The notes under the pieces were generated by a model. It searched no databases and was not told where the DNA came from. It worked only from the letters and a program-made list of their open reading frames with translations. A DNA stretch of 64,000 bases from Lachnospiraceae bacterium. GTDB taxonomy: Bacteria; Bacillota; Clostridia; Lachnospirales; Lachnospiraceae. Location of the stretch: positions 1-64,000 of the forward strand of contig JAJQDE010000027.1 of the NCBI GenBank assembly GCA_021202335.1, given 5' to 3'. Below, piece after piece: positions 52,587-58,237 of this stretch. A program made the translations under genes and the position numbers. Within the stretch, counting starts at the first letter, position 1; the number at the start of each line of letters is the position of its first letter.

Positions 52587-54225
52587 CTATTCGTTTAACT
52601 CTGCAAGACACTGGTCGATGATTGAGCCTACAGATGCAACATATGTTTCCATAGCCGCATCCACATCGCCGCCCTCAACAACCACGCTTGTGATTACTGC
52701 AAGCTTCGCGTCGTAAATCGTACCTGACTCGTTCGTGTAGGTTTCCGATACGGGCGAAACAGGAGCATCCACGCAGTTCTCCGTGAAGAATGTGTTGCCT
52801 GAAGCCGCCAGCTCTGTCTGTGCCGCATAACCGTTTGTCAGCTCACATACCGAAAGAGCCGGGTCAATGAGGTTCTTCTTCCATACCGAGTTAGGGTCGT
52901 TAGGCGACTGCTTTAAGTGGAACTCACCGTCAGCATATTCATAGGTCTTTTCGCTGTCCTTACCCGCGTTTGTCGTGAAGGTTTCAGCCTCTGTTGACCA
53001 GTGAACACCCTCCGCGCCATATGTCCAAAGCGTCTGAACAACATCGCCGTCCATCATGGTTTCGATAAACGCATCAAACACTGCCTGATTGCGCGTATCG
53101 TCGCCTGAATCGATGATACACCATACAGGAGCTTCACGGTTAATATAACCGCCCACCGTGCTTGTAATCTCCTCAATGGGAGCAAGCTGTACAAGCTCCT
53201 CATCAACCTCATTCTTAATCAGATTGTCGGTCAATGTCTGATACCATGAGCCTGCCCAATATGTGAACACGCCTGACGAACCTGTCTGGTCGTTTGAGAA
53301 CCACTTCTCACGCGCAATCTTTGTAGATGCCGTAAGTGTTTCAGGGTCGATGCAGCCGTCAACATATGCCTGCTGCAATCTCAAAAGAGCTGCCTTTGTT
53401 TCCTCTGTCTGGAAGCCGTCATACCATACGCCGTCGTCCCCCTGAAGGATTGCGGGGTATGAGTCCTGCCAGAACTCAGGCAGATAATTGATATAAGGAG
53501 CCTCGTTTCCTACAAAGCCCGAAGCCACAACGCCGTAGGTGTCGCCGTTTACGCCGTTTCCGTCAGGGTCTCCCTCATGGAAAGCAAGGAGCATGTTGTA
53601 GTAATCGTCATAGGTCTTAACATCATCCGCGTTAATTCCCACTGCGTCAAGCCATGCCTTCTTCACATAGGTAACGCAGCCGTTTCCGTATGTCGGTGCA
53701 AAGCCATATAAAGAACCGTCGTCCTCCTTCAAAGCCTCATTAATTCCGGGAAGCGTCATTCGCTCCTGGAAATCAGCGTTCTCATAAGCCTCTGACAAAT
53801 CCCAAAGAAGACCTGTCGGAGCATACTGCTTGAACATATCCGCAGACATGATGATTACATCAGGGTAATCACCGCCGGCAAAAAGGCGTCCTACTGCGTC
53901 CGTATATCCCGAATGGTCAAGCTGCTGAATGTTCAGGGGAATACCCTACCGCTTCCTCCCATTGCTCCTTAAACTCAGCCTGTCCGTTATCTGTCGTCGC
54001 CGTGAGCGTACCGTTTACCACCATGGTAATTCCGGTATCGCCTAAAATGTCATGATAATCAACATCTTCTGTTGAAGCGTCCGCTGACGCACTGCTGTCC
54101 GCCGCATTGCTGTCTGATGTGCTGCTGTCCGTTGTGCTGCCCGAGTCAGACGAGCTGCTGCCGCATGCTGCAAGCGATACTGTCATCACAGATGCGAGAA
54201 GCAATGATAATGCTTTCTTTTTCAT
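52587..54225 (-). pseudogene. Extracellular oligosaccharide-binding lipoprotein (copy 2), frameshifted at ~53944-53946
   Basis: N-terminal ORF 53917..54225 ends AVGYSPEHSAA*; paralogue 56573..58237 reads AVGIPLDIQQLDHSGY. Copy 2 has an extra C (plus strand CCC vs CC). Confidence 0.82.
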
Positions 54226-54328: not shown

Positions 54329-54375
54329 GCATAAATTGTGACATTTGCAGAAAAATTTGTTATATACGCAAAAAT

Positions 54376-54557
54376 AGAATGTGCCGAAAGCACATTCTCG
54401 CGCCGAAGCGCAGTCGCGTCAGCGACTGGTTTCCTAAGCGCGAAGTGCGCATCCTCGCGGAGCGTTTTGTCGTATAGGATGAACTTTCCTATACGACAAA
54501 AAGAGAATGTGCCGAAAGCTCATTCTCCTTGCTGATGAACGCAGGCACTGCGTTCAT
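54376..54557. repeat. Array of consecutive perfect or near-perfect inverted repeats (structured intergenic element)
   Basis: AGAATGTGC/GCACATTCT; GCGC/GCGC; CAGTCGC/GCGACTG; GCGC/GCGC; TTTTGTCGTATAGGA/TCCTATACGACAAAA (15 bp); GAGAATGtGC/GCtCATTCTC; ATGAACGCAG/CTGCGTTCAT. Confidence 0.88.
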
Positions 54558-54562
54558 TATTT

Positions 54563-55432
54563 TTATTCCTTAACAGCTCCGATATTAACACCTGTCACGA
54601 AATACTTCTGCAGGAACGGATACAATAACATGAATGGCAGAATTGCCGCAATGATACCTGCGTTAAACAGCGTATTTTGGGACACATTATACGATGTCGT
54701 AGGCGTATCGCCGTCCATGATCATGTTTCTCAGCTTATACTGGAAGTTTACCTGGTTCGGGTCAGTTATGTAAATCTTAACCGTTGAGTAATCGTTCCAT
54801 ACCGTCACGGCAAACATCAGACCGATGGATGCCAGCGCCGCCTTTGAAAGCGGAAGCACAATCGTAAAGAAAATTCTCATGGGAGAGCATCCGTCAATTC
54901 TTGCCGCCTCATAAAGCGACTCAGGTATTCCCTCAAAGAAGTTCCTCATAAGCACCAAATTGTAAACATTGATACCATGCTTTACAACCAAAATCCACAT
55001 GCTGTTTACAAGACCCAACTTCTTCATTACCAAATACTCAGGAATCATACCGCCCGAGAAAATCATGGTAAACAGTAAGAAATATGCGAAGAAGTTACGA
55101 CCCGGCATATCAAACTGTATAAGCACATATCCGCCAAGTGTTGAAAGCAGCAGACCAAGCAATGTTCCGAGCACTGTCGTAATAATCGAATTTATGAATG
55201 GTCTGTACAACGCCTGTGTTTCAATAATGGTCTTATAACCTTCAATCGTAAACTTGCTGGGCCAAAGCTGGAACTGATAAACGCCTACTCTGTTTAACGA
55301 GTCCACAAGCACCTTCCAAATCGGTATCAGGATAATTAAACCTATGATAATAAACACAATGTAATTGACAATGTCGAACAATTGAAGCCTGTCTCCGGGC
55401 TTTTTTGTTTTCATTTCCTTTTCCTTTGCCAT
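54563..55432 (-). CDS. ABC sugar transporter permease (LplC/YtcP-type)
   Basis: YEAARIDGCSPMRIFFTIVLPLSKAALASI EAA motif; 6 TM helices. Confidence 0.9.
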   Translation of the reverse strand: MAKEKEMKTKKPGDRLQLFDIVNYIVFIIIGLIILIPIWKVLVDSLNRVGVYQFQLWPSKFTIEGYKTIIETQALYRPFINSIITTVLGTLLGLLLSTLGGYVLIQFDMPGRNFFAYFLLFTMIFSGGMIPEYLVMKKLGLVNSMWILVVKHGINVYNLVLMRNFFEGIPESLYEAARIDGCSPMRIFFTIVLPLSKAALASIGLMFAVTVWNDYSTVKIYITDPNQVNFQYKLRNMIMDGDTPTTSYNVSQNTLFNAGIIAAILPFMLLYPFLQKYFVTGVNIGAVKE

Positions 55433-56572: not shown

Positions 56573-58237
56573 CTACTCGTTTAACTCTGCAAGGCACTGG
56601 TCGATGATTGAACCTACCGTTGCAACATATGTTTCCATAGCTGCGTCTACGTCGCCGCCCTCAACAACCACGCTCGTAACTGCCGCAAGCTTAGCATCGT
56701 AAATCGTACCTGACTCGTTTGTATATGTTTCTGATGAAGGTGATGTAGGAGCATCCACACAGTTCTCCGTGAAGAACTCGTTACCTGCTGCCTGAAGCTC
56801 TGTCTGTGATACATAGCCGTTTGTAAGCTCGCATACCATAAGAGCAGGGTCAATCAGGTTCTTTGACCATACAGTGTTAGAGTCCGTAGGAGACTGCTTT
56901 AAGTGGAACTCACCGTCAGCATACTCATATACCGTCTCGTTTTCCGTACCCGGGTTTGTCGTGAAGCTCTCTGCCTCTGTTGACCAGTGAACGCCCTCTG
57001 CGCCGTATACCCAAAGTGTCTGAACAACATCGCCGTCCATCATGGTCTCGATGAATGCGTCGAACACTGCCTGATTACGTGTTTCATCACCTGAATCAAT
57101 GATAACCCAAACGGGAGCCTCACGGTTAAGGTAGCCGCCCCAAGAGCTTGTAATCTCTTCAATCGGAGCAAGCTGTACAAGGTCTGAATCAACCTCATTC
57201 TTTATAAGATTGTTTGTAAGCGTCTGATACCATGTACCTGCCCAGTATGTTAACACGCCTGACGAACCTGTCTGGTCGTTTGAGAACCACTTCTCACGCG
57301 CAATCTTTGTAGATGCAGTAAGTGTCTCAGGGTCGATGCAGCCGTCCTGATATGCCTGCTGCAATCTTAACAGGGCTGCCTTTGTTTCCTCCGTCTGGAA
57401 GCCGTCATACCATACGCCGTCTTCATCCTGAAGAATTGCGGGGTATGCATCCTGCCAAAACTCGGGCAGATAGTTGATGTAAGGAGCCTCGCTGCCTACA
57501 AAGCCTGCTGCCACAACGCCGTATGTATCGCCGTTTACGCCGTTTCCGTCAGGATCGCCCTCATGGAATGCAAGGAGCATGTTATAGTAGTCGTCATACG
57601 TCTTGATATCATCCGCATTGATGCCTACCGCGTCAAGCCAGCTCTGCTTTACATAGCTGACGCAGCCGTTGCCGTATGCAGGAGAGAAGCCGTAAAGCGC
57701 TCCGTCGTCCGTATAAAGGTTGGCATTGATTGCAGGAAGCGTCATTCTTGACTGGAAGTCAGCGTTCTCATATGCGTCTGACATGTCCCAAAGAAGACCT
57801 GTCTGCTCATACTGCTTGAACATATCCGCTGACATGATCATTACGTCAGGGTAATCTCCACTGGCAAACAGACGTCCCACTGCGTCAGCATAGCCTGAAT
57901 GGTCAAGCTGCTGAATGTCAAGGGGAATACCTACTGCCGCCTCCCACTGCTCAACAAGCTCTGCCTGTCCGCTGTCAGTGGTTGCCGTAAGGGTACCATC
58001 TACTACCATCGTAATACCCGTATCGCCTAAAATGTCGTGATAATCAGCCTTTTCCGCTGACGTGTCTGCCGATGCGCTTTCTGACGCGCTGCTGTCCGAA
58101 GAGCTGCTGCTTGAATCGGAAGCGCTGCTGCTCGAATCTGAAGAGCTGCTGCTTGAATCAGAAGAGCTGCTGCCGCATGCTGCTAAGGAAACTACCATCG
58201 CAGATGCGAGAAGTAAAGATATTGCTTTCTTTTTCAT
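56573..58237 (-). CDS. Extracellular oligosaccharide-binding lipoprotein (copy 1, intact)
   Basis: Lipobox VSLAACGSSSSDSSSSSS; full-length, close paralogue of copy 2. Confidence 0.9.
   Translation of the reverse strand: MKKKAISLLLASAMVVSLAACGSSSSDSSSSSSDSSSSASDSSSSSSDSSASESASADTSAEKADYHDILGDTGITMVVDGTLTATTDSGQAELVEQWEAAVGIPLDIQQLDHSGYADAVGRLFASGDYPDVMIMSADMFKQYEQTGLLWDMSDAYENADFQSRMTLPAINANLYTDDGALYGFSPAYGNGCVSYVKQSWLDAVGINADDIKTYDDYYNMLLAFHEGDPDGNGVNGDTYGVVAAGFVGSEAPYINYLPEFWQDAYPAILQDEDGVWYDGFQTEETKAALLRLQQAYQDGCIDPETLTASTKIAREKWFSNDQTGSSGVLTYWAGTWYQTLTNNLIKNEVDSDLVQLAPIEEITSSWGGYLNREAPVWVIIDSGDETRNQAVFDAFIETMMDGDVVQTLWVYGAEGVHWSTEAESFTTNPGTENETVYEYADGEFHLKQSPTDSNTVWSKNLIDPALMVCELTNGYVSQTELQAAGNEFFTENCVDAPTSPSSETYTNESGTIYDAKLAAVTSVVVEGGDVDAAMETYVATVGSIIDQCLAELNE

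What the first reader, a model, noticed from the sequence alone, without database searches (positions are those of the whole stretch)
54376..54557. Dense array of seven tandem stem-loops, including a perfect 15-bp and a perfect 10-bp stem
Reading 54376-54557 gives these inverted repeats back-to-back with almost no spacer: AGAATGTGC-cgaaa-GCACATTCT; GCGC-cgaa-GCGC; CAGTCGC-gtca-GCGACTG; GCGC-gaagt-GCGC; TTTTGTCGTATAGGA-tgaactt-TCCTATACGACAAAA; GAGAATGtGC-cgaaa-GCtCATTCTC; ATGAACGCAG-gca-CTGCGTTCAT. Two hairpins share the GAATGTGCcgaaaGC module. The array starts about 5 nt after the lplC-type permease stop and precedes the promoter of the second binding-protein gene. No terminator needs this structure. 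It could be a REP/MITE-like repeat, a 3'-end RNA stabiliser, or a structured ncRNA.
Basis: seen in the sequence. Interest (0 to 1): 0.82.

Follow-up and report, generated by a model that had tools for sequence, protein, structure and literature searches.

The report
Terminator-targeting hairpin repeat in gut Clostridia
The cluster of hairpins is mostly one copy of a small jumping DNA repeat, about 130 letters long and folded into several hairpins, which occurs in dozens of copies across the gut-bacterial family Lachnospiraceae and tends to insert right after the stop signals of transcription; what moves it is unknown.

Summary
The hairpins are real and far beyond chance (fold z = -10), but they are a composite, not one array. 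Window 54374-54502 is one copy of a ~130-bp interspersed repeat ("E") with about 35 copies in this genome and matches in 79 of 150 sampled Lachnospiraceae genera. Most copies have one polarity: gene, intrinsic terminator hairpin, T-run, then E; some sit directly behind T-box attenuators. Two [Clostridium] aminophilum genomes give filled/empty sites. The cleanest, with 97-99% identical flanks, shows insertion 3' of the terminator's TTTT with no target duplication. The target is complementary to a fixed sequence inside the element, and both change together between subfamilies (TTTT/AAAA; TTTAA/TTAAA). I read it as a non-autonomous mobile element that works like an IS200/IS605-type single-strand transposon. 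No mobilising enzyme was found: this genome and 10 of 25 other E-rich genomes lack a Y1 transposase. The remaining hairpins are the permease gene's likely terminator (54503-54527) and a fragment of a second repeat (54528-54560). No Rfam family matches; no description was found in the papers searched.

The parts
54374..54502 (-). One full-length copy of the E repeat. 'Forward' = minus strand, i.e. the direction permease gene -> terminator -> E. About 130 bp; its last 5 bases (54498-54502) are the A-run that is the terminator's T-run on the minus strand and are probably target-derived
   Evidence: Own-genome DNA search, alignment of copies, covariance-model hit E=9.9e-27 at C45:54374-54504
54376..54398 (.). 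Hairpin P1 AGAATGTGC-cgaaa-GCACATTCT, the outer hairpin at the far (right, in forward sense) end of E
   Evidence: covariation at 6 of 10 pairs
54400..54450 (.). Stem P2: GCGCC...GCGC (54400-54411) paired over long range with GCGC...GTGCGC (54438-54450), with a GAA/GAA internal loop, enclosing stem P2a 54411-54417/54422-54428
   Evidence: Structural alignment and counts
54456..54464 (.). Mini-stem P3 CGC-GGA-GCG; the GGA triloop is conserved and the arms co-change (CGC/GCG, CCC/GGG, GCC/GGC)
54465..54501 (.). Hairpin P4, 15-bp perfect stem next to the insertion site; inner TTTT (54465-54468) is the proposed guide, outer AAAA (54498-54501) the proposed target
54498..54527 (-). Likely intrinsic terminator of the permease transcript: hairpin 54527-54503 (7 bp, one mismatch, 2 bp) followed by T-run 54502-54498 on the minus strand; the hairpin is itself P1-like
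   Evidence: Sequence; parallel hairpin + T-run at most other copies. The consensus terminator scan did not list it
54528..54560 (.). Truncated copy (last hairpin only) of a second, unrelated multi-hairpin repeat of the same genome: CTTGCTGATGAACGCAGGcACTGCGTTCATTAT
   Evidence: 9 further copies at 8 loci
54563..55432 (-). ABC sugar transporter permease (carbohydrate-type; closest NCBIfam UgpE, below its cut-off) whose 3' end the element follows

Best explanation
SHOWN OR STRONGLY SUPPORTED: E is a ~130-bp (about 50-175 bp, modular) interspersed, non-coding, multi-hairpin repeat of Lachnospiraceae. Its stems are maintained by selection, it is variably present at orthologous sites, and it lies in one polarity directly 3' of the T-run of intrinsic terminators (one large subfamily instead uses TTTAA, often a gene's stop codon). 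INFERRED: it is a non-autonomous mobile element (MITE-like) that works like an IS200/IS605 single-strand transposon. A terminal hairpin (P4) places a short internal guide (inner T-run on the display strand, i.e. AAAA in the forward sense; TTAAA in the other subfamily) opposite the matching tetra/pentanucleotide of the target, the element joins 3' of it without target duplication, and P1 marks the other end. Intrinsic terminators are favoured because their T-run matches the guide; a hairpin exposed in single-stranded DNA may also help. In the window the element landed on the T-run of the permease terminator, and a fragment of a second repeat lies next to it. The mobilising enzyme is NOT identified. 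Effects on transcription are probably incidental.
For: Copies: 47 BLAST matches and 45 covariance-model matches in the own genome, some of them palindromic shadows; 14/38 genus genomes; 79/150 genera of the family, many at the scoring cap. A core-sequence scan of GTDB contigs returned Lachnospiraceae or broadly titled Clostridia records, among them Coprococcus comes, Lachnospira, Butyrivibrio and [C.] aminophilum. Structure: 96.5% paired cells, 22 pairs with double changes, 139 double-changed cells, 0/500 shuffles. Polarity and target: the 3' end of a gene faces the P4 side in 72/89 copies of the main subfamily. A strong hairpin starts at the P4 border in 57/94 copies against 10/94 on the other side and 2/94 shuffled, p ~ 4e-13. 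Two copies directly follow Rfam-confirmed T-boxes, L067 and L090. Mobility: L375 (filled) against L321 (empty), flanks 98.9%/97.4% identical, single ~174-bp difference. Empty AATCCAA|AAAAGAGAACTTCC; filled AATCCAA|[GAACAAAG...ATGAACC]|AAAAGAACTTCC. Less clean cases are L287/L355, L286/L321 and L377/L387. Guide/target: TTTAA target in 22/28 and TTAAA guide in 26/27 of subfamily 2. In G000 the inner run is constant and the outer run varies (0/33 against 8/33, counted by eye; p = 0.005). IS200/IS605 properties of comparison (no TIR, no TSD, insertion 3' of a tetra-/pentanucleotide read by a guide at a hairpin base): PMC7290912.
Against: No Y1 transposase in the own genome. Y1 presence is not significantly associated with E across 150 genera (p = 0.10), and 11 of 26 E-rich genomes, this one included, have none. 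Y1 loci are almost never next to E. Only one filled/empty pair is really clean, and it has a 2-nt deletion beside the junction; the other pairs have extra flank changes. The guide/target geometry differs from IS608: target and guide form the base of the P4 hairpin itself. About 40% of main-subfamily copies lack a detectable abutting terminator hairpin by the strict criterion. Presence/absence cannot tell insertion from precise loss at a single site.
Confidence: 0.72

Rival explanations
1. E is a functional RNA element (3'-UTR stabiliser, anti-terminator or regulatory ncRNA) retained at many operons, not a mobile element.
For: Deep covariation with conserved loops (GGA triloop, tandem G-A internal loop) and an excess of G-T over A-C mismatches on one strand, 73:30.
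Against: G-T wobble is only 2% of pairs, low for RNA. The RNA-favoured strand is antisense to the upstream gene. Copies follow terminators, where transcription should stop. Neighbouring genes are unrelated. Copies are homogenised within a genome and absent at orthologous sites in a close relative.
Confidence: 0.1
2. E is spread in trans by group IIC intron reverse transcriptases, which also insert just after intrinsic terminators.
For: Same target preference and polarity as bacterial-C introns (PMC8919778); this genome has one group II maturase.
Against: 6 of 11 E-rich, Y1-free genomes have no group II maturase match. No Rfam family, group II intron models included, matches the copies searched. 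Subfamily 2 uses TTTAA/stop codons rather than terminators.
Confidence: 0.07
3. E is a REP/REPIN-type element moved by a RAYT (REP-associated Y1 transposase) now lost from many genomes.
For: Short hairpin repeats, intergenic, non-autonomous. RAYT-like Y1 genes (245-310 aa) occur in several E-bearing Lachnospiraceae, and one lies ~440 bp from an E copy.
Against: No Y1 in this genome; only 2 of the Y1 loci examined have an E match nearby, one of them weak; no significant association over 150 genera.
Confidence: 0.12
4. Copies spread without any dedicated enzyme, by template switching between hairpins and A/T-runs during replication or repair.
For: Small deletions and replaced bases at several junctions, tandem and nested copies, P4-only copies.
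Against: Fixed polarity, a recurring far boundary (GAAYAAAG), full-length copies nearly identical across distinct genera in subfamily 2, and stems preserved across the whole family.
Confidence: 0.1

Closest known systems
IS200/IS605-derived MITEs (HUH Y1 single-strand transposition)
   Same: Subterminal hairpins, no terminal inverted repeats, no target duplication at the one clean site, insertion 3' of a fixed tetra-/pentanucleotide complementary to an element-borne guide at the base of a hairpin (properties from PMC7290912)
   Different: No Y1 gene in this or many E-rich genomes; target and guide extend the P4 stem itself; a conserved multi-branch core (P2/P3) not known to me from IS200/IS605 ends
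Pneumococcal BOX, RUP and SPRITE repeats (PMC3049150)
   Same: Small, multi-hairpin, intergenic families of many copies, judged parasitic, clustered and nested, BOX modular; SPRITE has AAAA/TTTT ends and lies near 3' ends of genes
   Different: BOX and RUP have TIRs and make TSDs; E has neither at the site examined. E is spread over a whole bacterial family and has filled/empty sites at terminators
Bacterial-C (group IIC) introns (PMC8919778)
   Same: Insertion immediately 3' of intrinsic terminators in one polarity
   Different: E is ~130 bp and has no Rfam group II match; many hosts lack a group II maturase
REP / REPIN elements with RAYT
   Same: Short palindromic intergenic repeats, non-autonomous, structure conserved
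   Different: No RAYT in this genome, RAYT loci generally not flanked by E, longer multi-helix core

Membership tests
IS200/IS605-derived MITE | Hairpins near both ends | tested here: met
   P4 and P1, both covarying
IS200/IS605-derived MITE | No target-site duplication; insertion 3' of a fixed short sequence | tested here: met
   L375/L321 junction; TTTAA in 22/28 of subfamily 2. One clean site only
IS200/IS605-derived MITE | Internal guide complementary to the target | tested here: inconclusive
   TTTT/AAAA and TTTAA/TTAAA pairs co-differ between subfamilies, but whether the outer bases are target-derived rests on one clean empty site plus variability of the outer run
IS200/IS605-derived MITE | Cognate Y1 TnpA in the genome or in a longer element with the same ends | tested here: not met
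   No PF01797 in own genome; no significant association over 150 genera; no E flanking the IS605-type loci examined apart from one weak match
REP/REPIN (RAYT-associated) | RAYT gene flanked by or co-occurring with the repeat | tested here: not met
   single adjacency at L230/L268
BOX element | boxA-boxB-boxC sequence modules with TIR and TSD | tested here: not met
   No TSD at the clean empty site; features of BOX from PMC3049150. Sequences were not compared directly
Classical DDE-transposase MITE | Terminal inverted repeats and target-site duplication | tested here: not met
   Ends differ (GAAYAAAG... and ...AAAA); no TSD at the site examined
Group II intron | Conserved catalytic RNA domain or intron-encoded RT | tested here: not met
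   No Rfam match; no room for an RT inside the ~130-bp element
Known Rfam RNA family | Match above gathering score | tested here: not met
   Best matches are far below the gathering score; copies elsewhere also none

The most novel reading that the evidence does not exclude
A family-wide class of small mobile hairpin elements that home to intrinsic terminators and T-box attenuators by pairing an internal guide with the T-run, spread by a mobilising activity that is neither a Y1 transposase nor a group II intron RT, since they are abundant in genomes where neither was detected (G124, G127, G152, G179, G048, G100).
Probability: 0.3. Interest if true: 0.8.

Novelty: new variant of a known kind. 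Interest (0 to 1): 0.57.

Why it matters
It identifies a repeat that has amplified in many genera of one of the main gut-bacterial families, which appears undescribed in the sources searched and would confuse terminator, small-RNA and riboswitch predictions there (copies sit against attenuators and 3' ends). It offers a testable case of target choice by base pairing that favours terminators and, in a subfamily, stop codons: near-harmless landing sites. It also leaves a sharp question: what moves it in genomes without the usual hairpin-recognising enzymes?

Tried and rejected
Single ncRNA or terminator array: rejected, since it is an interspersed repeat beside locus-specific terminators. Known Rfam family: none. 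RAYT/Y1 mobiliser: tested three ways, not supported. Group II intron RT as mobiliser: absent from 6 of 11 E-rich Y1-free genomes. Remnant of an IS605 element in E. oxidoreducens, suggested by a CCCCCACCT/AGGTGGGGG hairpin inside P4 of some subfamily 2 copies: no transposase ORF there. RNA strand test by G-T versus A-C mismatches: 73:30 favours the display strand, but G-T is only 2% of pairs and P1 leans the other way in the first set, so not decisive. Viral contigs: pattern absent. L295 and L301 as further empty sites: different or non-homologous inserts, not counted.

Full report
WHAT IS THERE. The 206-nt stretch folds at -97.9 kcal/mol against a shuffled mean of -55.5 (z = -10.1), and z = -8.6 on the other strand. 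Chance is excluded.

IT IS A REPEAT, AND A COMPOSITE. Searching the genome's own 2.74 Mb with 54340-54600 gave 47 matches on many contigs. Dissecting them shows separate modules. (1) 54374-54502 is a full copy of a ~130-bp repeat, here called E. (2) 54503-54527 is a P1-like hairpin directly followed, on the minus strand, by TTTTT: the likely terminator of the permease gene 54563-55432, although the simple consensus scan did not list it. (3) 54528-54560 is the last hairpin of another multi-hairpin repeat with 9 further copies.

STRUCTURE. Full-length E copies from this genome and relatives align over ~130 positions. In display (+) orientation the order is P1; P2, a long-range GCGCC...GTGCGC stem with a purine internal loop enclosing P2a (GTCGC-tt-GCGAC); ATCC; the mini-stem P3 NNN-GGA-NNN; and P4, a 13-18-bp A/T-rich stem with TAGGA/TCCTA at its top. 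Counting pairs on 38 distinct sequences gives 96.5% standard pairs against 86.5% after shuffling, 22 pairs with changes on both sides, 139 double-changed cells, and no shuffle out of 500 as high on any of five measures; sliding the partner by 1-3 columns destroys it. On 129 further matches 95% of cells are Watson-Crick and only 2% G-T. Selection on folded nucleic acid is clear; the rarity of wobble pairs suggests DNA rather than RNA, without proving it.

DISTRIBUTION. With DNA queries E occurs in 14/38 same-genus genomes and 43/150 genomes of the family taken one per genus. A scan of GTDB contigs with a 21-base core pattern stopped at its limit after 119 stretches; the titles shown are of Lachnospiraceae or broadly titled Clostridia records. 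Among 292 Clostridia genomes only family members match strongly, except one at 5e-14 and weak matches in a few other families. Viral contigs have none.

WHERE IT SITS. E has a strong polarity. In 72/89 copies of the main subfamily the gene on the P4 side points its 3' end at E. Immediately outside P4 lies a locus-specific hairpin whose T-run, on the other strand, is E's terminal A-run: a strong stem starts at that border in 57/94 copies, against 10/94 at the other border and 2/94 in shuffled flanks (p ~ 4e-13). Two copies directly follow T-box leaders that reach Rfam's gathering score (L067, L090), i.e. attenuator terminators upstream of genes; other T-box-like neighbours (L022, L085) were judged by eye only. 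In a second subfamily (Lachnospira, Butyrivibrio, E. oxidoreducens) E follows TTTAA in 22/28 sites, and in about 11 of the 28 sites the TAA is the stop codon of a long frame.

IT MOVES. Two [Clostridium] aminophilum genomes were compared at element sites. At L375 against L321 the flanks are 98.9% and 97.4% identical over ~1.9 kb each side and differ by a single ~174-bp insertion. Empty: AATCCAA|AAAAGAGAACTTCC (terminator stem). Filled: AATCCAA|GAACAAAG...CCTATGAACC|AAAAGAACTTCC. No target duplication is seen; two bases of the terminator foot are missing. Other sites (L287/L355, L286/L321, L377/L387) show the terminator retained without E in one genome, with more flank change; L374/L358 has a P4-only version in one genome. 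Within genomes copies are alike, and between genomes the stems differ by compensated changes, as expected for repeated amplification from lineage-specific masters.

HOW IT PROBABLY WORKS (INFERENCE). At the clean site the outer A-run of P4 comes from the target, while the inner T-run belongs to E. In this genome the inner run is constant and the outer varies (0/33 against 8/33, counted by eye). In subfamily 2 target TTTAA pairs with guide TTAAA (26/27). Target and guide thus change together between subfamilies. Insertion 3' of a tetra-/pentanucleotide recognised by a guide at a hairpin base, with terminal hairpins and no TSD, is the behaviour of IS200/IS605 transposons (PMC7290912). So E works like such an element. 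It is not filed as a member: no Y1 transposase exists in this genome, Y1 presence is not significantly linked to E over 150 genera (51/79 against 36/71; p = 0.10; 11 of 26 E-rich genomes lack it), and the Y1 loci examined are not flanked by E except one, plus one weak match. Group IIC introns share the landing site (PMC8919778), but 6 of 11 E-rich Y1-free genomes have no group II maturase match. The mobiliser is open.

CLOSEST KNOWN. The nearest described kinds are the pneumococcal BOX/RUP/SPRITE repeats (PMC3049150), REP/REPINs and IS200/IS605 MITEs. Literature searches found no description of this family in Lachnospiraceae; that library lacks most subscription papers, so novelty is provisional.

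VERDICT. The point of interest is the terminator/guide-directed insertion of a family-wide element with no identified mobiliser.

Noticed in passing
window 52587-54225 (minus): The substrate-binding protein gene next to the array is frameshifted: one extra G near codon 94 relative to the 82%-identical paralogue at 56573-58237, splitting it into 102-aa and 420-aa frames. Real pseudogene or assembly error not resolved.
   Followed up: partly
window 54528-54560; L009, L031, L032, L041-L045: A second multi-hairpin repeat in this genome, consensus ...GCGCTGTCCTTTGCGCATACCGCAAGTTTCGCAGAAACTTGCTGATGAACGCAGGTACTGCGTTCATTATATCAT, 9 copies at 8 other loci; the window holds only its last hairpin.
   Followed up: partly
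L161:1619-1814, L167:3510-3692: Some subfamily 2 copies carry an extra CCCCCACCT...AGGTGGGGG hairpin inside P4, which reminded me of IS605-type right ends, with no transposase ORF.
   Followed up: partly
L295:1331-1433 vs L323: A different ~100-bp hairpin insertion next to a terminator is present in one [C.] aminophilum genome and absent in the other; possibly a degenerate or related element.
   Followed up: no
L230/L268 (genome G187): A RAYT-like Y1 gene (258 aa) lies ~440 bp from an E copy at a contig end, the only close Y1-E adjacency with a strong E match.
   Followed up: partly
genomes G366, G430, G448 (other Clostridia families): Covariance-model matches outside Lachnospiraceae, one strong (5e-14) and several weak multi-copy ones, hint at related repeats elsewhere.
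   Followed up: no
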